A stretch of DNA of 37,124 bases from a virus: positions 1 to 37,124 of IMG/VR virus record IMGVR_UViG_3300023179_000273; one strand, given 5' to 3'. The notes below the pieces were generated by a model, which was given only the letters and a program-made list of their open reading frames with translations, did not search any database and was not told where the DNA came from. Shown one piece after another: positions 3,159-28,184 of this stretch; position 1 is the first letter of the stretch, and each line of letters starts with the position of its first letter. The translations under genes and the position numbers were made by a program.

Positions 3159-3513
3159 GGGGGCGTAACGGTATCGATTGGATATAGAAGATTATATTAG
3201 CAAGTAGTGGTTGGTGGAAAGGCCACTATAAAAATCTACCAAATGCTTTAACTGGCACAAATCAGTTAGCACTTGCTGCCTGACAAAAAAGGGCAGTAAC
3301 AGACTGCGATTGCGAATGAGGGTAGCGATCAAAAGTCTGTTGTCAAATCCCTCTGCACTTACAATATCCAACGGGTTGTAGGTTAAGAGAAGTTGGTAAG
3401 ATTGGATTAGTCTTGTTTATTCTGTAATCCGATTTAACTCATGAATAAAATAAACTTGTAGAAGATGTAATTAGAAATATCGCAAGAAATGGGTTCGACT
3501 CCCATCGCCTCCA
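3159..3513 (+). ncRNA. ssrA: phage-encoded transfer-messenger RNA (tmRNA)
   Basis: 355 nt. The 5' GGGGGCG (3159-3165) pairs with CGCCTCC (3506-3512) as a 7-bp acceptor stem with a G-U wobble at the third pair, the G3-U70 identity element for alanyl-tRNA synthetase, followed by discriminator A (3513). The T-arm is ATGGG-TTCGACT-CCCAT (3489-3505). CCA is not encoded. A short reading frame at 3245-3283 encodes ALTGTNQLALAA then TGA. Its hydrophobic LAA-type end is the classical degradation tag read by ClpXP-type proteases. The segment after the tag contains stems such as ACAGACT/AGTCTGT expected of the pseudoknot domain. It would rescue stalled ribosomes and tag the unfinished protein. The resume codon is most likely GCT at 3245, but it is not proven. 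Confidence 0.92.
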
Positions 3514-3515
3514 AT

Positions 3516-3863
3516 ATGCCTAGAAAAATTTGCACTTACTGTGGCGAAAGAAAAAACCGAAAAAGTTTTCCTAAACACAGTATGTACAAAGATAATCTTG
3601 ATAGCAGATGCAGAAAATGTGTCAAGAAACATTCCAAGATAAGAAGCGCCCTGCATAAAATAGCACCACCAAGACCAGAAGTTTGTGAGTGTTGTAAAAA
3701 AACACCCATTAAATGGGTATTAGATCATGACCATAGCAACGATAAATTCAGAGGATGGTTGTGCAGTAGATGTAATGAGGGTCTTGGTAAGTTAGGAGAT
3801 AATTTGGAAGGTATTATCAATGCTACTAACTACTTAATAAAAGTGAGATTAAATCAAAAATAA
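3516..3863 (+). CDS. endonuclease VII-like (HNH/treble-clef) nuclease
   Basis: 115 residues from the ATG at 3516. An N-terminal CxxC...CxxC zinc knuckle (C6, C9, then CRKC) is followed by the endonuclease VII core: CECC, then LDHDH, then FRGWLCSRCNEGLGKLGDN. The DHDH histidine-metal motif and the paired CxxC zinc ligands match T4 gp49-type Holliday-junction resolvases and related free-standing phage nucleases. The start is 3 bases after the tmRNA 3' end with no ribosome site of its own, since the tmRNA T-arm occupies the leader; expression therefore depends on read-through transcripts. It may be a resolvase working with the RuvB-like motor, or a selfish homing-type nuclease; position beside the tmRNA favours the second, domain content the first. 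Confidence 0.8.
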   Translation: MPRKICTYCGERKNRKSFPKHSMYKDNLDSRCRKCVKKHSKIRSALHKIAPPRPEVCECCKKTPIKWVLDHDHSNDKFRGWLCSRCNEGLGKLGDNLEGIINATNYLIKVRLNQK

Positions 3864-8245: not shown

Positions 8246-8527
8246 ATGAGTAATATTAGTACGGTTGAGAAGCAAAAGCGTGTTCGTTGCTCTGATGAGC
8301 AGTTTCTAGAGGCTGTTTTTAGCAGTAAGACTTATGCTGAGATTGCCGCTAAGACTGGTCAAAAGGTGGCGAGTACCGCTGCTCGTTACGCTCGCACTAA
8401 GGCGGCTCTGAGTAAGAAGGGTGTTGAACTTCCTAGTATGGAACGTGCGAAGCCCGCTAAGACTGTTGATAATGTCGAGGCTCTTGCTGACATTGTTCGC
8501 CGTCTGAAGGCCCACACAAATGGCTGA
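8246..8527 (+). CDS. small basic helix-turn-helix-like protein
   Basis: 93 residues from the ATG at 8246, with GGAGG at 8235-8239. The upstream in-frame ATG at 8222 lies before the ribosome site and is rejected. The segment FLEAVFSSKTYAEIAAKTG followed by STAARYARTK has helix-turn-helix character, followed by a basic linker and a helical end. Codons are noticeably G/C-richer (CGT, GCT, AAG, CTG) than in neighbours, as in rIIA and rIIB, suggesting high expression. With a strong promoter and a protective 5' hairpin, it may be an abundant DNA-binding protein (inference). Confidence 0.7.
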   Translation: MSNISTVEKQKRVRCSDEQFLEAVFSSKTYAEIAAKTGQKVASTAARYARTKAALSKKGVELPSMERAKPAKTVDNVEALADIVRRLKAHTNG

Positions 8528-8623: not shown

Positions 8624-8631
8624 GTGTTTAT

Positions 8632-8909
8632 GGGAGCGTAGACCAACGGCAGAGTCAAAGGACTTGAACTAAAACAATTTGAGTGCATAAGGAGAAATCT
8701 TTATAGTATAACCTGTCAAATTCGGTGAAGGCTTTAAAATGCTAATACCGAGCCAAGCATAGAAATATGAAGGTGTAGAGACTTAATGGCAGGAACCTAA
8801 AACGAAAAGTCATGGTTAAGATAAAGTCCAGACCACAAACAGAAATGGTAGTGAAAACTATAGTGGTAAGAAAATCCTTCAAGTGTGGGTTCGAATCCCA
8901 CCGCTCCTA
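8632..8909 (+). tRNA. tRNA with UAA anticodon, interrupted by a group I intron
   Basis: Exon 1 is 8632-8665 and exon 2 is 8871-8909. The joined RNA is 73 nt. The acceptor GGGAGCG/CGCTCCT has a G-U closing pair, the D-stem is GAC/GTC, the anticodon stem is AAGGA/TCCTT with loop CTTAAAA, the variable loop is CAAGT (5 nt) and the T-arm is GTGGG-TTCGAAT-CCCAC. Discriminator is A; CCA is not encoded. The splice point falls after T34, so the spliced anticodon is TAA, reading leucine codon UUA. The short variable loop is unlike bacterial leucine tRNAs, which are class II. With a different splice point the loop could be read as TGA, but the intron P1 pairing supports TAA. Identity is thus probable, not certain. 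Confidence 0.85.
8666..8870 (+). ncRNA. group I intron (IC3-like) in a tRNA anticodon loop
   Basis: 205 nt, no open reading frame. P1: exon ACTT (8662-8665) with GAGT (8681-8684), giving the required U-G at the 5' splice site. P2: ATAAGGA/TCTTTAT capped by GAAA. P3: CCTGTC (8712-8717) / GGCAGG (8788-8793). P4: TCGGT/ACCGA, with ACCGAGCCAAGC matching the conserved P4-P6 strand. P7: GACTT (8780-8784) / AAGTC (8824-8828). P8: AACC/GGTT. P9: ACCAC (8832-8836) / GTGGT (8863-8867). The intron ends in G (8870). The conserved strings GTGTAGAGACT and AAAGTCC and the insertion point between bases 34 and 35 match the self-splicing tRNA-Leu(UAA) introns of cyanobacteria and plastids. Self-splicing is expected from the intact core. 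Confidence 0.9.
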
Positions 8910-8930
8910 TTCTTTTAAAGAGGTTTCAAA

Positions 8931-10850: not shown

Positions 10851-13538
10851 ATGAAGTTGGCAGATAGGACGGTTGAGGTTCATAGTGCTGGGGTTAGTGC
10901 TAGTAATCAGTTTAGTATTGCTCAGACTAGCAAAATGTTTAAAATCTTGTCAGACTCTCTATATTCTGACAAGGTTATGGCTGTTATTCGTGAACTCGCA
11001 ACTAATGCTTATGACTCTCATATTGCGGCAGGAAATAAGAATCCTTTCTTGGTAAAATTGCCTACCGCTGCTGATCCTAATTTTACAGTACGCGATTATG
11101 GTACTGGTCTTAGTCAGACTGATATGGAGAGCCTGTATACAACATACGGAGCAAGTAACAAAAATACCAGTAATGATTTTGTTGGGTGCCTCGGTCTAGG
11201 CTCTAAGAGTCCATTTGCTTATACTAAGAGTTTTACAACAACATCTTATTTTAATGGTACTCAATATACCTATATTGCCGCTATTGATGATAGTGGTGTT
11301 CCTACTCTGAATCTTATTCATTCTTGCGAAACATCTGAACCTAATGGTCTTGAGATTAGTTTTGCTGTGAAGCAATATGACTTTACAGAATTTAGTCAGA
11401 AGGCTATTAGGATTTTCCACTATTTTAAGATGAAGCCCATTATTAGTGGTGGCGTTCATTGGGATTTCTCTAAGGATTATGATAATAAGAACATCATCAT
11501 TAGTGGAGAAGGCTGGAGAGTTTGTCGTCTAAATAATGATGGTAAACTATTTCCTAACCATAGTCATCGTATCAATAGCGGCGTTATCGCTATCATGGGG
11601 AATATCGCGTACCCTGTTCAAACTGAAAATTTGATTGGAGAAGAAAAAGTCGAAACTCCAGATCATATTGCTCGCTGGAATAGAGCCTTCAATAAGGCAG
11701 ATATTGCATCATGGAAGAGTTTTGTTAGTGAAGTTATTAACCACGGCCTTTATCTTGAGTTGGATTTTGGTATTGGTGAACTAGAGATGGATGTTAGTCG
11801 TGAAGGTTTGCAGTATACTAAGGCGGTAATTAAGAATCTTCGTGGAAAGACTCAAGAGATTTTTGCCGAACTCAAGGATATGTTTTCAGATAAGATCGCT
11901 GCTGCTAAAACTAAGGTAGAAGCCATTTCAACATATTATCAGTTGAATGATCTTGCTGGCGGATGGGGAGTTGGTGCATCTTGGAAGGATAGCCAGGGAA
12001 AGGTGCATGATATTAGTTCTGGTTCTGATCTTGAATATAAGCTTAAGAAGAGCAAGAACTTGTATGTGTTTAATTATAGAACAGCGGGATTTCGTTCTCG
12101 TCGTATGGTTTATCTTACGAATATGATTCATCACGAAACTCTTACTGGTAAGGGATATAATTACTGGAATAATGCTCGCAAGACAGGACAGATCGCGTTT
12201 TTCTATTGCGATATGGCAGCAACAGAAACTGCCAAGAAAATTTTGACAAAGTATTGCAATCAAAACGATTGTTTTGCTTATCTTATGGTTGATACAGACG
12301 ATCATAAGAATGTGAACGGTGGTTTTGAGGATCTAATTGCTGATGTTGGAGAAGATAATATTCTTAATGTTTCAGACTATCGTGATCTTCTCAAGAGCAA
12401 TAGTCCACGCAAAAGTAGTACCAAGGGTAGTAAGGGTAGTGTTAGCGATCAAGATGTTTTCTTGATTGTTGGCGACCAGAAGAATACGAGTCCTTTGACT
12501 ATTGAATATAATTCATCAGCCTATATGAGAAGTATGACCGCTGATCGTCTGGATGAATTTTTGGAAGAAGATACTATTGTTTATGTTCCTATTCTACGAT
12601 ATGCTTCTACTAGTGGCTATCCTAGCGTTACTGAAATTTATAGTCAGTTGGGTACTGATAACAACATCTCAAGGATTCCAGGCTTTCTTGATGGAACAAA
12701 TATTTATGCTATCAAGCATAACTTTGTGAACAAGTTGATTGCAGATGGATACAATCTTGTAGACTTTAATACTTGGATGAAGGATCGTCTAAAGAGTTAT
12801 AATACTGATAAGTTTGCTGAAATGATTAAGTTTAATGCTATGGTAGAAAAGTGTAAGAAGGAGTATGATAGTCATGATAAAACTACATCCGATTATTATG
12901 GACGAGCTAATATTGATAGAACAGTATTGTATCATATTCTAAATATCTTTGGACTAGATTATGAAAAGTACATTTCCAATAAAGAAATTGTGAAGTGTCT
13001 AAATAATCTTATGGTTATTGAGTTTTTTGCATACACTATTCATCGTGATAAGTTTGATATGAATAGATTTTCTCAGACAGATTACTATGGACTGATTACT
13101 AAATTGTTGAGCGATATTGGTATCAATGGTTTGAATAGTAAAGAGATCAAGAATATGAATATAACCTATAATAGTATTCTTAGTATGCTGCGTTGTTTGT
13201 ATGCTGCTACCGATAGTAGCGGTGCAACACACGATAATTATATCTCAATTATTAAAACTGACGTTGGTAATAATTACTCAATGCCCAGTATGGATAGTAT
13301 AAGAAATACCTTGAAGGTGGAGATTGACAAGAACCCGCTGCTCAAGTATATTATTTCAAGTAATAGTGTAGATGGGAACCTGAGAGGTTTGAATAAAAAC
13401 CCCAATCCCTTGAAGCAAATTGATGGTGCGTCTAGTCGTTACAATTATTACAGTAATAGTAGCGGCAGAGAAAGTTGGTTTCAAAAAATGGATGATGTTG
13501 AGTCATTCAAACAGCAGTTGAGTAGCACAATTAAGTAA
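10851..13538 (+). CDS. rIIA: rIIA-like protein (GHKL ATPase fold)
   Basis: 895 residues, longer than T4 rIIA. The N-terminal domain has the GHKL/Bergerat ATP-site motifs: N-box ELATNAYDSH, RDYGTGLS (DxGxG) and GCLGLGSKSPFAY (GxGxxS). A transducer-like domain follows, then a long C-terminal half with no obvious motif. In T4, rIIA and rIIB are membrane-associated proteins that counter RexAB exclusion and affect lysis and replication; this protein's partner rIIB follows directly. TTGGAG lies at 10837-10842. Codon use is richer in GTT, GCT and CGT than in neighbouring small genes, consistent with strong expression. Confidence 0.88.
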   Translation: MKLADRTVEVHSAGVSASNQFSIAQTSKMFKILSDSLYSDKVMAVIRELATNAYDSHIAAGNKNPFLVKLPTAADPNFTVRDYGTGLSQTDMESLYTTYGASNKNTSNDFVGCLGLGSKSPFAYTKSFTTTSYFNGTQYTYIAAIDDSGVPTLNLIHSCETSEPNGLEISFAVKQYDFTEFSQKAIRIFHYFKMKPIISGGVHWDFSKDYDNKNIIISGEGWRVCRLNNDGKLFPNHSHRINSGVIAIMGNIAYPVQTENLIGEEKVETPDHIARWNRAFNKADIASWKSFVSEVINHGLYLELDFGIGELEMDVSREGLQYTKAVIKNLRGKTQEIFAELKDMFSDKIAAAKTKVEAISTYYQLNDLAGGWGVGASWKDSQGKVHDISSGSDLEYKLKKSKNLYVFNYRTAGFRSRRMVYLTNMIHHETLTGKGYNYWNNARKTGQIAFFYCDMAATETAKKILTKYCNQNDCFAYLMVDTDDHKNVNGGFEDLIADVGEDNILNVSDYRDLLKSNSPRKSSTKGSKGSVSDQDVFLIVGDQKNTSPLTIEYNSSAYMRSMTADRLDEFLEEDTIVYVPILRYASTSGYPSVTEIYSQLGTDNNISRIPGFLDGTNIYAIKHNFVNKLIADGYNLVDFNTWMKDRLKSYNTDKFAEMIKFNAMVEKCKKEYDSHDKTTSDYYGRANIDRTVLYHILNIFGLDYEKYISNKEIVKCLNNLMVIEFFAYTIHRDKFDMNRFSQTDYYGLITKLLSDIGINGLNSKEIKNMNITYNSILSMLRCLYAATDSSGATHDNYISIIKTDVGNNYSMPSMDSIRNTLKVEIDKNPLLKYIISSNSVDGNLRGLNKNPNPLKQIDGASSRYNYYSNSSGRESWFQKMDDVESFKQQLSSTIK

Positions 13539-13566
13539 ATAATTTCACAGGAAAACAAGGAGAATT

Positions 13567-14439
13567 ATGATGAGTGTTCCATTTATGTGGGTTGATGGTA
13601 ATCTTACGCTGGTTCTTAATAACAGGACGTACCAAGTACTTCCTGACCATATTAACTATAAGATGATTCTTGAGCGTCTGCCAACCGCTGATGCTGATGA
13701 ACTCTTGGATATTGTTGATGTACAGAAGGCTGTTGCTGCTTTTAGCGATGGTCTTGTTGAGATCAAGAATGGCAAGGTCTTGTATGAAGGCGAGGAAGTT
13801 CATGGCAGTATTAGCAAGAGAATTCTTGAGTTTATGAGCAAGGGTCTGCCTTTTCAGCCTCTAGTTAATTTTCTCAATAATCTGATGGAAAATCCTAGTA
13901 TGCAGAGTCAAAAGGAACTTTATGATTTCCTTGAGCATGAACATCTGCCTATTACTGAGGACGGTCATTTCCTAGCATATAAGGCTGTTCGTAGCGACTA
14001 TATGGACAAGTACGCTGGCAAGTTTCGTAACAAGGTTGGTGATGTTTGCACTATGACTCGATCTAAAGTAGACGATGATCGTGGGCGTGGTTGTTCAAAC
14101 GGACTTCATGCTGGTGCATTAAATTATGTTGCTAGTTATGGGAGCGTTGATGCTGGTGATAAAATTGTGATTGTGAAAATTAATCCTCGTGATGTTGTTA
14201 GTGTTCCTAGTGATTGTAATTGTGAGAAACTTCGCACCTGCCGATATGAAGTAGTCGGTGAGTACCAGGGCGAACTTAATAAGCCTCTTTATGCTGCTAC
14301 TTTTACTGAAGATGAGTACGCAGATGATGAGGATGATTATGGCAACGATTATGATTGGGGTTGGAATGAAGATGATGAAGATGCTGAAGAAGCATATTCT
14401 GACTATGATGACGAGGATGATTACGACGATCAGTATTGA
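13567..14439 (+). CDS. rIIB: rIIB-like protein
   Basis: 290 residues. The segment FLEHEHLPITEDGHFLAYK, then VDDDRGRGCSNGLHAG, VKINPRDVVSVP and LRTCRYEVVGE follows T4 rIIB closely from memory (ITEDGYFYAYK, CSRGLHV, HPRDVVSIP, MRTCQYEVVE). The T4 N-terminal helix-turn-helix part is absent. After residue 250 comes an added Asp/Glu/Tyr tail. Start: AAGGAG at 13558-13563, with ATGATG giving 13567 or 13570. The leader contains TCACAGGA as for rIIA; a weak TTGAGT near 13518 may help a local promoter, otherwise it is read from rIIA. Confidence 0.9.
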   Translation: MMSVPFMWVDGNLTLVLNNRTYQVLPDHINYKMILERLPTADADELLDIVDVQKAVAAFSDGLVEIKNGKVLYEGEEVHGSISKRILEFMSKGLPFQPLVNFLNNLMENPSMQSQKELYDFLEHEHLPITEDGHFLAYKAVRSDYMDKYAGKFRNKVGDVCTMTRSKVDDDRGRGCSNGLHAGALNYVASYGSVDAGDKIVIVKINPRDVVSVPSDCNCEKLRTCRYEVVGEYQGELNKPLYAATFTEDEYADDEDDYGNDYDWGWNEDDEDAEEAYSDYDDEDDYDDQY

Positions 14440-25094: not shown

Positions 25095-25624
25095 TGAATA
25101 GATTAAAAAATCAAAGAGTGTATTTAGCGGGTGCGATGGATAGAGTGATAGATAGGGGCAATGGGTGGAGAGATAATATAACACCTTTTCTAGAAAATTT
25201 AGGCGTTGTTGTGTTTAACCCTATAAAAAAACCAACCAAACTTGGTAAAGAAGATGCTGAAACACACGAATATAAGACTAAACTAAAATATGAGAAAAAC
25301 TATGATGCACTATCCTCGATAATGAAAACTATACGAGGAGTGGACTTAAGACTAGTAGATATTAGCGATTTTTTGATAGTTAATCTAGACTTAGATGTAC
25401 ATCCGTGTGGCACATACGAAGAAATATTTTTAGCCAATAGATCTAAAAAGCCTGTAGTTGTACACATGGAACAGGGCAAGCAAAATGCTCCTGACTGGTT
25501 GTTTGGAACAATTCCTCATCAGATGATTTTTTCTACTTGGAAAGAAGTTCAAACATATCTAAAATATATAGACGGTAGCTGTGAAATAGAATATCATAAC
25601 AGATGGAGATTTTTTGATATATAA
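25094..25624 (+). CDS. nucleoside 2-deoxyribosyltransferase-like protein
   Basis: 176 residues. VYLAGAMD near the start, GWRDNITPFLENLGVVVFNP, then DFLIVNLDLDVHPCGTYEEIFLANRSKKPVVV: the Rossmann-like fold of nucleoside 2-deoxyribosyltransferases, whose nucleophile is the glutamate in GTxxE (here GTYEE). The family transfers deoxyribose between bases or hydrolyses nucleotide N-glycosidic bonds. It overlaps the start of the GMP reductase gene (TAATG), so purine salvage or cleavage of host nucleotides is likely. The distinction between transferase and hydrolase cannot be made here. Confidence 0.78.
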   Translation: MNRLKNQRVYLAGAMDRVIDRGNGWRDNITPFLENLGVVVFNPIKKPTKLGKEDAETHEYKTKLKYEKNYDALSSIMKTIRGVDLRLVDISDFLIVNLDLDVHPCGTYEEIFLANRSKKPVVVHMEQGKQNAPDWLFGTIPHQMIFSTWKEVQTYLKYIDGSCEIEYHNRWRFFDI

Positions 25625-26478
25625 TGCAAATCGTATCTAATGAAATTAAACTTGATTTTGATGATGTATTAATAGAACCTCAAAGATCTACCTTAACCAG
25701 CAGATCGGAAATTGTTTTAGAAAGATCATTCTATTTCTATCATTCTCCAAGAACATGGAGAGGCATACCAATAATGTGTGCTAATATGAGTTTTTGCGGT
25801 TTTGATATGGCAATAGAATTAGCTAAATTTAAAATGATCTCTTGCTTACATAAATATCATAAAGTTGATGATTTAGTAAGGTATTTTCAAAAATATCCAC
25901 AAAACTTAGACTATACATTTGTGTCTATAGGATACAAAAAAAGCGACTTAAACCATCTATTAGAACTTAAAGAAAAACTAAATTTACAACCTAATATTTG
26001 CATAGATGTTCCTAATGGTCATATGGATGTTTTCGTTAAGTATTGTAAAAAGGTTAGAGAAAATTTTCCAGAGAGTATTATAATAGCTGGTAATGTAACC
26101 AATACTGCTTCTACACAAGAGCTGCTAATTTATGGTGGCGTGGATATTGTAAAATGTGGAATCGGTGGAGGATGTTTTATTGGTGGTACCAAAGTTATCA
26201 CTAAAAACGGATTTAAAAACATTGAACGCGTTAAAATTGGAGACGAAGTAATTACCCATAAAGGGCACCTTAAAAGGGTTATCGGTACTAATAAAAGACT
26301 AGAAACCAATACAATAATTAATATAAACGGTATTTCTTGTACTCCTAACCATCAATTTTATGTTATATTAAAAACAGAAATCGACTTAGTTAATGACTCA
26401 AATATACACAAATATGCAAAGTGGGTGTCGGCGGGGGATTTGTCTGAAGACTATGTTTTAGTAAAATATCAGAAATAA
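25624..26478 (+). CDS. guaC: GMP reductase N-terminal half fused to N-intein (split gene)
   Basis: 284 residues. Residues 1-183 are the N-extein: LDFDDVLIEP, MCANMS and VDIVKCGIGGG match the IMPDH/GMP reductase barrel. Residue C184 begins a 101-residue intein N-half: CFIGGTKVITKNG (block A) and CTPNHQFYV (block B, TxxH). The ORF stops there. The C-half is at 27489. Trans-splicing would join GIGGG to SACTTR, rebuilding the catalytic loop with its Cys. The layout, insertion site and both intein halves resemble the fast-splicing IMPDH-1 split intein described from ocean metagenomes. GMP reductase makes IMP from GMP with NADPH. Confidence 0.93.
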   Translation: MQIVSNEIKLDFDDVLIEPQRSTLTSRSEIVLERSFYFYHSPRTWRGIPIMCANMSFCGFDMAIELAKFKMISCLHKYHKVDDLVRYFQKYPQNLDYTFVSIGYKKSDLNHLLELKEKLNLQPNICIDVPNGHMDVFVKYCKKVRENFPESIIIAGNVTNTASTQELLIYGGVDIVKCGIGGGCFIGGTKVITKNGFKNIERVKIGDEVITHKGHLKRVIGTNKRLETNTIININGISCTPNHQFYVILKTEIDLVNDSNIHKYAKWVSAGDLSEDYVLVKYQK

Positions 26479-26498
26479 CCAGTAGCAACCCCGATCTT

Positions 26499-26510
26499 TG
26501 GTGTATAAAT
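26499..26510 (+). promoter_or_regulatory. candidate phage promoter motif TGGTGTATAAAT
   Basis: In the 46-base gap between the intein N-half and the endonuclease gene, 14 bases before the ATG at 26525. One of the best matches to the recurring motif; the nuclease may have its own transcript. Confidence 0.35.
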
Positions 26511-26524
26511 TTATTGAGGTTACA

Positions 26525-27517
26525 ATGAAACACATAATTATAAATGGTCAAAAATTGACTGATATACAAAAAATAGGAAGAACCAACTATTATATATTGG
26601 ACAACAATACTCATATTACAAACAAAAACTTTGTAACAGTTGAGACAAGATGCCCAAGCTGCTTGAAGATTAGAAGTATAAAAAAACTACACAGGTATAA
26701 TTTATATAAGGCGTCTGATTGTAAAGAGTGTAAAAATGTGGGATCAAAAAATAGTTTTTTCGGAAAAAAACATAGCCAAAAAACAAAAAATAAAATCGCC
26801 AAAAAAAATAAAAATAAGCTAAAAGGATCAAAAAATCCTATGTATGGCAAGTCATTACTGAAACATTGGATAAGTAAATATGGTAAAATAATAGCAGATA
26901 AAAAATATAGTCAATATTTAAAGAACTTAAGCAATTCATTAAGCGGAAAAAATAATCCGTTTTATGGTCAAAAACACACCCCAAAAACACTATCTATCAT
27001 CAAACAAAAAAATAAGATCTATAGAGAAAATTTATCAGAAGAAGAAAAAGAAAAAATCAGCAAAAAACTATCTGAGTCTCAAAAACAACTATATAATAAA
27101 AATCCACAAGATTATATTACTAAGAGAAGTAAAGCCGGAAAAATAACAGCCACAAAAATAGAAAAATATAAAATAAATAGTATTGAACAGATAGTGCGAG
27201 ATAAACTAAAAGAATTGGGTTTGGATTTAGAATATTCTGTCATACTAGACTACAAACAGTTTGATTTTGGATCAAGAAAATACAAGATACTTCTTGAAGT
27301 ACAGGGGGACTATTGGCACGGGAATCCTAGTATATATACCAAAAAACAGTTAAACGATACACAAAAAAGAAATATTAAGAAGGATAAAGATAAAGTCAGA
27401 TTTGCTAAAAAACATTCAATGAAACTATATCATATATGGGAAACTGATATAAGAGCAAATAATTTTAATGTACTTGAGGAAATAAAAAATGAAATTTGTA
27501 CTAGAACCAATATCTAA
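26525..27517 (+). CDS. free-standing homing endonuclease (NUMOD3 repeats + Vsr-like EDxHD nuclease)
   Basis: 330 residues from the ATG at 26525 (GAGG at 26515-26518). An N-terminal zinc knuckle (CPSC...CKEC) is followed by NUMOD3 DNA-binding repeats (GSKNSFFGKKHSQKTKNKI, GSKNPMYGKS, GKNNPFYGQKHTPKTLSII). The C-terminal nuclease follows the Vsr-like pattern: SIEQIVRDKL, ILDYKQFDFG, LLEVQGDYWHGNP, KDKDKVRFAKKHSMKLYHIWETDI. It sits in the gap of the broken gene and overlaps the C-half by 29 bases. This matches the fractured-gene arrangement in which such a nuclease spreads the split intein by cutting uninterrupted alleles. Confidence 0.9.
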   Translation: MKHIIINGQKLTDIQKIGRTNYYILDNNTHITNKNFVTVETRCPSCLKIRSIKKLHRYNLYKASDCKECKNVGSKNSFFGKKHSQKTKNKIAKKNKNKLKGSKNPMYGKSLLKHWISKYGKIIADKKYSQYLKNLSNSLSGKNNPFYGQKHTPKTLSIIKQKNKIYRENLSEEEKEKISKKLSESQKQLYNKNPQDYITKRSKAGKITATKIEKYKINSIEQIVRDKLKELGLDLEYSVILDYKQFDFGSRKYKILLEVQGDYWHGNPSIYTKKQLNDTQKRNIKKDKDKVRFAKKHSMKLYHIWETDIRANNFNVLEEIKNEICTRTNI

Positions 27518-28184
27518 AATAGATTCATATGAAATTACTGAAGAAACTGTATACGATATAGAAGTAGAAGACGATCATTCGTTTTGTGTAAACGATGGCG
27601 TCGTTGTTCACAACTCCGCCTGCACAACCAGATTCTTAACGGGATGCGGAATCCCACAACTGTCTGCCTGTTTAGAAAACTCCTATGTCGCTCACGGTCT
27701 TCAAAACGGACCCAAGAAGCTGGGACTAATCTGTTCCGATGGTGGACATAAAACAGTTGGAGATGTTTGCAAAGCATTTTGTGCAGGAAGTGACTTTGTA
27801 ATGCTTGGCGGATATTTTGCCGGAACAGATGCCTGCGAAGGAGAATGGACTTATGAGTATAAAGCAGATAGCTGGTGGCAAACTCTGGATCCAGGATATG
27901 TTACAGAAAAAAGAAAACTAAGCTTTACATATTACGGAATGAGCACCCATCATGCCCAAGAATTATATGAAGATAATATTAAAAACTATAGAGCCTCTGA
28001 AGGGACAAAAGTTAATGTTGCATATAAAGGACCGGTCACAAAAGTTATACAAGAATTACTGGGCGGTATAAGGTCAGCTTGTTGCTATGTTGGGGCAGAT
28101 TCTTTAAAACATATGTCTCGATGTGGTAAATTTTGTAGAGTTAACAATATACATAAAAACACTAATCCCGTATTCGGAGTTTAA
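27489..28184 (+). CDS. guaC: C-intein fused to GMP reductase C-terminal half (split gene)
   Basis: 231 residues. Residues 1-42 are the intein C-half: VYDIEVEDDHSFCVNDG (block F) and VVVHN (block G), ending His-Asn. S43 is the +1 nucleophile. Residues 43-231 are the C-extein: SACTTR (C45 is the catalytic cysteine of the family), GCGIPQLSA, CSDGGHKTVGDVCKAF, DFVMLGGYFAGTD, FTYYGMSTHHA, GPVTKVIQELLGGIRSACCYVGA and the HMSRCGKFCRVN...FG ending of GMP reductase rather than IMP dehydrogenase. Mature spliced length is 183+189, about 372 residues, near bacterial GuaC. All residues essential for splicing are present, so activity is predicted. Confidence 0.93.
   Translation: MKFVLEPISKIDSYEITEETVYDIEVEDDHSFCVNDGVVVHNSACTTRFLTGCGIPQLSACLENSYVAHGLQNGPKKLGLICSDGGHKTVGDVCKAFCAGSDFVMLGGYFAGTDACEGEWTYEYKADSWWQTLDPGYVTEKRKLSFTYYGMSTHHAQELYEDNIKNYRASEGTKVNVAYKGPVTKVIQELLGGIRSACCYVGADSLKHMSRCGKFCRVNNIHKNTNPVFGV

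What the first reader, a model, noticed from the sequence alone, without database searches (positions are those of the whole stretch)
8632..8909. Phage tRNA with a self-splicing-type group I intron in its anticodon loop
The exons fold into a complete tRNA, and the 205-nt insert shows P1, P2, P3, P4, P7, P8 and P9 pairings plus the terminal G. The insertion site and core sequence match the tRNA-Leu(UAA) introns of cyanobacteria and plastids. Phage group I introns usually sit in protein genes (td, nrdB, nrdD), so a tRNA intron in a lytic phage is exceptional, and it has no endonuclease of its own.
Basis: partly seen in the sequence, partly recalled or inferred. Interest (0 to 1): 0.92.

Follow-up and report, generated by a model that had tools for sequence, protein, structure and literature searches.

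The report
Self-splicing intron in phage leucine tRNA
A virus of bacteria carries a leucine tRNA gene interrupted, exactly in the anticodon, by a 205-base RNA element of the kind that cuts itself out; the element is real, and near relatives of the virus carry the same gene with or without it, so it belongs to a common but little-described class rather than being a one-off.

Summary
Rfam's group I intron model hits 8656-8852 at 63.7 bits (threshold 50). ARAGORN in intron mode calls tRNA-Leu(UAA) with a 205-nt intron (8666-8870) between U34 and A35; its default mode misses it. In 27 related phage genes the drawn structure forms in 94% of cells, against 31-45% when slid, and 43 of 68 pairs show two-sided changes. 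Intron-free phage tRNAs identical to the joined exons exist (73/73 nt). One sister pair, 93-97% identical in its flanks, differs by exactly a 197-nt intron at this junction. Splicing itself was not tested.

(1) It is not exceptional: one motif found 98 such places in viral contigs, 84 with a tRNA called by ARAGORN, against 1 for a reversed-motif control. (3) The tRNA has a short, class-I-like variable loop, unlike ordinary bacterial tRNA-Leu.

A 2014 review stated that phage introns occur only in protein genes. I found no description of phage tRNA group I introns in the held library beyond one 2026 mention of 'intronic sequences' in jumbo-phage tRNAs.

The parts
8632..8665 (+). 5' exon of tRNA-Leu(UAA): acceptor 5' strand, U8-A9, 3-bp D arm with AA...GG loop, anticodon stem 5' strand, C32 U33 U34
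   Evidence: ARAGORN -i; intron-free phage tRNAs with the identical joined sequence L132, L151
8666..8870 (+). group I intron, 205 nt, between U34 and A35; last base G8870 is the terminal guanosine
   Evidence: RF00028 63.7 bits; ARAGORN; covariation; own model R1 141.1 bits (the window is in the training set)
8871..8909 (+). 3' exon: A35 A36 A37 A38, anticodon stem 3' strand, 5-nt variable loop CAAGU, T arm, acceptor 3' strand, A73; CCA is not encoded
   Evidence: ARAGORN; numbering
8660..8686 (+). P1: 8660, 8662-8665 with 8681-8684, 8686; U8665-G8681 is the splice-site wobble pair
   Evidence: the U-G, U-A and C-G pairs are identical in all 27 sequences
8687..8704 (+). P2: 7-bp stem, GAAA loop
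   Evidence: all 7 pairs show two-sided changes
8712..8793 (+). P3: 8712-8717 with 8788-8793
   Evidence: all 6 pairs show two-sided changes, 98% of cells paired
8722..8751 (+). P4 (8722-8726 with 8747-8751) and P5 (8730-8743)
   Evidence: P5 is weaker (74% of its cells paired)
8753..8773 (+). P6 and P6a (8758-8769, GAAA loop)
8780..8828 (+). P7: 8780-8784 with 8824-8828 (guanosine-binding helix by homology)
   Evidence: 100% of cells paired, one pair with two-sided change
8794..8817 (+). P8: 8794-8797 with 8814-8817
   Evidence: 100% of cells paired
8832..8867 (+). P9 (8832-8836 with 8863-8867), P9a (8840-8847), P9b (8849-8860, GAAA loop)
8678..8680 (+). UUU that pairs with 3' exon A8871-A8873 (P10)
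   Evidence: 97.5% of cells paired, but almost invariant, so no covariation test is possible
8246..8527 (+). small upstream gene of unknown function, about 100 nt before the tRNA; marks the same locus in 33 phage contigs (23 with intron, 10 without)
   Evidence: no Pfam match

Best explanation
A phage-encoded tRNA-Leu(UAA) gene is interrupted by a small group I intron without an endonuclease gene. In the transcript the intron folds; a guanosine attacks after U34 (held by P1, U8665-G8681), then the free U34 end attacks after G8870 (3' exon held by P10), joining C32-U33-U34 to A35-A36-A37-A38. The joined RNA is a 73-nt tRNA that gets CCA added, is charged with leucine and reads UUA codons, the commonest leucine codon in this phage. 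The intron is a mobile or losable element that comes and goes at this site among close phages. Shown: anatomy, structure by covariation, exact boundaries by intron-free relatives, presence/absence. Inferred: splicing, charging, use in translation, and how it moves.
For: RF00028 hit; ARAGORN call of intron and joined tRNA, 0 of 1000 shuffles. Structure in 27 sequences: 94.3% of cells paired against 80.1% for column shuffles and 31-45% for slid partners; 43 of 68 pairs with two-sided changes, covariation score 0.399 against 0.139 shuffled and at most 0.110 slid. P1 splice-site pairs invariant. 65 viral stretches hold the same tRNA type without intron, two of them identical to the joined exons. 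L074 (197-nt intron) and L142 (none) are 92.9% and 97.1% identical on either side and differ at the tRNA by one clean insert between CTT and AAAA. Intron-free syntenic tRNAs score 60-61 bits with Rfam's tRNA model. Own core model R1 finds introns at related tRNAs and none in the six intron-free loci searched, L106, L132, L142, L147, L149, L151. TTA is 35% of leucine codons, 29 per 1000 codons, in ORFs chosen by me.
Against: No transcript or splicing data. P1 and P10 hardly vary, so covariation cannot test them. The short variable loop is unusual for tRNA-Leu, so charging is uncertain. The host is unknown. The 27 sequences are related, and the structure was drawn on one of them, which favours it in the counts.
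Confidence: 0.9

Rival explanations
1. A decayed intron in a dead tRNA gene: the fold is a relic and no mature tRNA is made.
For: No splicing data; tRNA-Leu with a short variable loop is unusual; one P1 mismatch (G8661 x G8685).
Against: Every core helix is kept with compensatory changes across relatives; exon arms are complete; the same tRNA type without intron is kept in many phages and annotated as tRNA-Leu in P-SSM7 and P-RSM6.
Confidence: 0.06
2. The intron was taken from a cyanobacterial or plastid tRNA-Leu(UAA) gene together with its site, and is a host-derived passenger.
For: Same insertion site by general knowledge; short-loop tRNA-Leu also occurs in cyanophages.
Against: The tree puts it among phage tRNA introns and the recalled Anabaena intron elsewhere; the same intron family sits in two tRNA-Leu classes in phages. 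No cyanobacterial intron was retrieved from a database here, so this is weak.
Confidence: 0.05
3. The intron splices, but the product is not a working leucine tRNA: it acts as a decoy or takes another amino acid.
For: Five-base variable loop instead of the long arm of bacterial tRNA-Leu; half of the intron-bearing UAA tRNAs in the set are of this short kind (24 of 49).
Against: Leu-like D arm (3 bp, A14-A15), A15-U48 and A73 are present (their role as Leu identity elements is from general knowledge); the phage uses TTA heavily; animal mitochondrial tRNA-Leu also has short loops (general knowledge).
Confidence: 0.1

Closest known systems
tRNA-Leu(UAA) group I introns of cyanobacteria and plastids
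   Same: Anticodon-loop position U34/A35, short intron without endonuclease gene, CUU/AAAA junction, similar core motifs
   Different: Host is a phage; shorter (205 nt against about 249 nt in the recalled Anabaena intron); sequence closer to phage introns; tRNA has a short variable loop
Group I introns of bacterial tRNA genes (Arg, fMet, Ile and, in the scan here, many others)
   Same: Same kind of site; 98 of 116 genome stretches found by the same motif are called as intron-bearing tRNAs by ARAGORN; own core model finds most of those tested
   Different: Cellular genomes, mostly Arg(UCU) and other isotypes in this scan; Leu(UAA) is 6 of 98 there and 45 of 84 in viral contigs
Phage group I introns in protein genes (td, nrdB, DNA polymerase, capsid)
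   Same: Phage setting; the cores of the capsid-gene introns in KT997847 and HTVC120P score 115 and 108 bits with the model of the tRNA introns
   Different: Those sit in protein-coding genes; this one sits in a tRNA
Related introns in named phage records: LR756501 (735 kb), Agrobacterium phage Atu_ph07, LR756511, Microcoleus phage My-WqHQDG
   Same: tRNA-Leu(UAA) in the first three, tRNA-Arg in the fourth, with introns of 205, 278, 700 and 213 nt; core model hits of 129, 82, 47 and 70 bits
   Different: Ordinary long-arm tRNA-Leu in the three Leu cases; the 700-nt one holds an HNH endonuclease ORF; Rfam's own model reports none of the four even at E 0.01

Membership tests
Group I catalytic intron (Rfam RF00028) | Score above the curated threshold | tested here: met
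   63.7 bits against 50
Group I catalytic intron (Rfam RF00028) | Core helices P3, P4, P6, P7, P8 supported by covariation | tested here: met
   94.3% of cells paired; every core helix has at least one pair with two-sided change
Group I catalytic intron (Rfam RF00028) | U-G pair at the 5' splice site and terminal G at the 3' end | tested here: met
   U8665-G8681 pair type in all 27 sequences; intron ends in G in all of them (invariant G240)
Group I catalytic intron (Rfam RF00028) | GTP-dependent self-splicing | not testable with these tools
   needs in vitro transcription
Group IC3 subgroup | subgroup-specific peripheral and core signatures | not tested
   no subgroup model available here
Cyanobacterial/plastid tRNA-Leu(UAA) intron lineage | Insertion between U34 and A35 | tested here: met
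   exact junction confirmed by L074/L142
Cyanobacterial/plastid tRNA-Leu(UAA) intron lineage | Groups with those introns in a tree | tested here: inconclusive
Bacterial tRNA-Leu | UAA anticodon | tested here: met
   ARAGORN
Bacterial tRNA-Leu | Long variable arm (class II) | tested here: not met
   5-nt variable loop CAAGU
Bacterial tRNA-Leu | A73 and A15-U48 | tested here: met
   sequence positions; their role is general knowledge
Mobile (homing) group I intron | Encodes a homing endonuclease | tested here: not met
   no ORF of 60 aa or more inside 8666-8870; other phage tRNA introns do encode HNH or PD-(D/E)XK enzymes

The most novel reading that the evidence does not exclude
Anticodon-loop introns are a common, functional feature of phage tRNAs rather than mere parasites: an unspliced precursor has no intact anticodon loop, so it could escape host anticodon nucleases or be held back until late infection, which might favour introns in UUA-reading and stop-codon-reading phage tRNAs. 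Nothing here shows such a function; it is not excluded.
Probability: 0.08. Interest if true: 0.85.

Novelty: new variant of a known kind. Interest (0 to 1): 0.55.

Why it matters
It corrects the stated rule that phage group I introns sit only in protein genes, and gives a natural experiment: close relatives with and without the intron at the same base. Standard tRNA finders skip such genes (default ARAGORN missed it; tRNAscan-SE 2.0 states it was not designed to detect them, PMC8450103), so phage tRNA lists are likely to be undercounted, among them tRNAs that ARAGORN reads as stop-codon suppressors. It also points to phages as possible carriers of tRNA introns between genomes.

Tried and rejected
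Chance pairing: rejected by Rfam, shuffles and covariation. Assembly artefact: rejected by a second contig. Other splice boundaries: rejected by intron-free relatives and the L074/L142 pair. Rfam RF00028 as a survey tool: abandoned, as it reports none of L002-L005, L031, L054, L075 even at E 0.01; an own core model was built instead. Tree of the upstream gene: only one well-supported inner branch, so the 6 counted changes of intron presence are a rough figure. ARAGORN's anticodon for some relatives is off because it misplaces the boundary (for example L094 and L026 read as Leu(UAA) by eye). Phage host and taxonomy could not be fixed: best named-phage matches of rIIA and ligase are below 40% identity. 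A pair with 98% identical upstream flank but different tRNA classes (L063/L052) suggests exchange of the whole tRNA-intron cassette; not pursued.

Full report
What is there. The window is a 37,124-base virus record. At 8632-8909 on the + strand lies a tRNA gene with an insert. ARAGORN in its default mode reports only a tmRNA in the window; with introns allowed it reports tRNA-Leu(taa) at 8631-8910 with a 205-nt intron, and the joined exons alone give the same tRNA. Rfam's group I intron model matches 8656-8852 over its whole length at 63.7 bits, threshold 50. None of 1000 dinucleotide shuffles of the region gave a tRNA call.

Anatomy. Exon 1 is 8632-8665 and ends in C32-U33-U34; the intron is 8666-8870; exon 2 is 8871-8909 and starts A35-A36-A37-A38. 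P1 pairs the end of exon 1 with 8681-8686, with U8665-G8681 at the splice site; P2, P3, P4, P5, P6/P6a, P7, P8, P9, P9a and P9b follow; UUU 8678-8680 can pair with the first three bases of exon 2 as P10; the last intron base is G. CCA is not encoded.

Structure test. The window gene and 26 different phage relatives were aligned. The drawn structure forms a standard pair in 94.3% of cells, against 80.1% when letters are dealt out anew within each pair and 31-45% when partners are slid by one to three columns. Forty-three of 68 pairs have changes on both sides; P2 and P3 have them at every pair. P1 and P10 are nearly invariant, so they are consistent but untested by covariation. The free RNAalifold prediction recovers most of the same helices.

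Boundaries. A pattern for the same tRNA without intron finds 65 stretches in viral contigs; two carry tRNAs identical to the joined exons over all 73 bases. Four intron-free relatives share the upstream gene and the tRNA at the same place. The clearest case is L074 against L142: 92.9% and 97.1% identical on the two sides, one with a 197-nt intron exactly between CTT and AAAA, the other without. This fixes the exon junction and shows fairly recent gain or loss.

How common. A motif that joins the 3' strand of P7 to a tRNA T arm at 45-75 bases finds 98 stretches in viral contigs, while the same motif with the T arm reversed finds one. ARAGORN calls an intron-bearing tRNA at 84 of the 98; 45 are Leu(UAA), 9 Arg(UCU), the rest many isotypes. 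A core model built from the Leu set finds introns in most of the others that were tested, including L031, L037, L075, L081 (anticodon CUA) and L054, L083 (anticodon UCA by eye), and in the four named phage records, and none in the six intron-free loci. The same motif finds at least 116 stretches in bacterial genomes, 98 with tRNA calls, many in Patescibacteria.

The tRNA. It has a five-base variable loop, not the long arm of ordinary bacterial tRNA-Leu, yet keeps a Leu-like D arm, A15-U48 and A73. Cyanophages P-SSM7 and P-RSM6 carry intron-free tRNAs of this form annotated as tRNA-Leu. At the locus of the window, phages carry either this short form or the long form, both with closely related introns. 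Of 49 intron-bearing Leu(UAA) genes in the set, 24 are short and 25 long. TTA is the commonest leucine codon in the main ORFs of the window, 35%.

Where the intron comes from. In a tree of introns the window's sits among phage tRNA-Leu introns; introns in capsid genes of an Autographiviridae phage and of a pelagiphage join a phage tRNA-Leu intron (L002) with good support; a Lactobacillus/Clostridia pair and the recalled Anabaena intron form a separate set. The window's intron has no endonuclease ORF, but longer tRNA introns in other phage contigs hold HNH or PD-(D/E)XK enzymes, so the class as a whole probably has homing members.

What is known. A 2014 review states that all phage introns seen to date were in protein-coding genes, despite many phage tRNA genes (PMC3984707). 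A 2026 jumbo-phage survey mentions 'intronic sequences' in tRNAs of recoded phages without naming the kind in the passages read (PMC13037316). A 2025 study of phage self-splicing introns mentions tRNA only in its reference list (PMC11878797). The Microcoleus phage record annotates a 286-nt tRNA-Arg that includes its intron. tRNAscan-SE 2.0 states that it was not designed to detect group I introns in tRNAs (PMC8450103). The held library lacks most subscription papers, so earlier reports may exist.

Verdict. The finding is real and its core reading correct. It is not a lone exception but one member of a widespread, under-annotated class: group I introns in phage tRNA anticodon loops. The splicing step and the use of the short-loop tRNA remain to be shown at the bench.

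Noticed in passing
window 3159-3516: Phage-encoded tmRNA (tag GTNQLALAA, RF00023 105.9 bits), also present in syntenic relatives L009, L029, L147, L149.
   Followed up: partly
window 3489-3863: Endonuclease VII-like ORF (PF02945) overlapping the 3' end of the tmRNA gene; possibly a free-standing homing enzyme next to a tRNA-like end.
   Followed up: no
window 25624-28184: IMP dehydrogenase/GMP reductase gene split by an intein: N part with Hint start, a separate NUMOD3 endonuclease-like ORF, then C intein part and C part. Looks like a split intein with the endonuclease ORF in between.
   Followed up: partly
L031, L037, L075, L081 and L054, L083, L096: Group I introns in phage tRNAs whose anticodons CUA and UCA would read UAG and UGA stop codons (core model hits for all but L096, which was not searched).
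   Followed up: partly
L063 against L052: 98% identical upstream flank, then different tRNA-Leu classes (short and long variable arm) with related introns: the tRNA-intron cassette seems to be exchanged as a unit.
   Followed up: partly
LR756501 (L002), Atu_ph07 (L003), LR756511 (L005): Unannotated tRNA-Leu(UAA) genes with introns in public phage records; Rfam's RF00028 misses them.
   Followed up: yes
bacterial loci L174-L289: Many anticodon-loop tRNA introns in Patescibacteria and other phyla at Thr(GGU), Asp(GUC), Arg(UCU) and further isotypes as called by ARAGORN.
   Followed up: no
window 10851-14439: rIIA-like and rIIB-like genes side by side; named relatives are distant.
   Followed up: no
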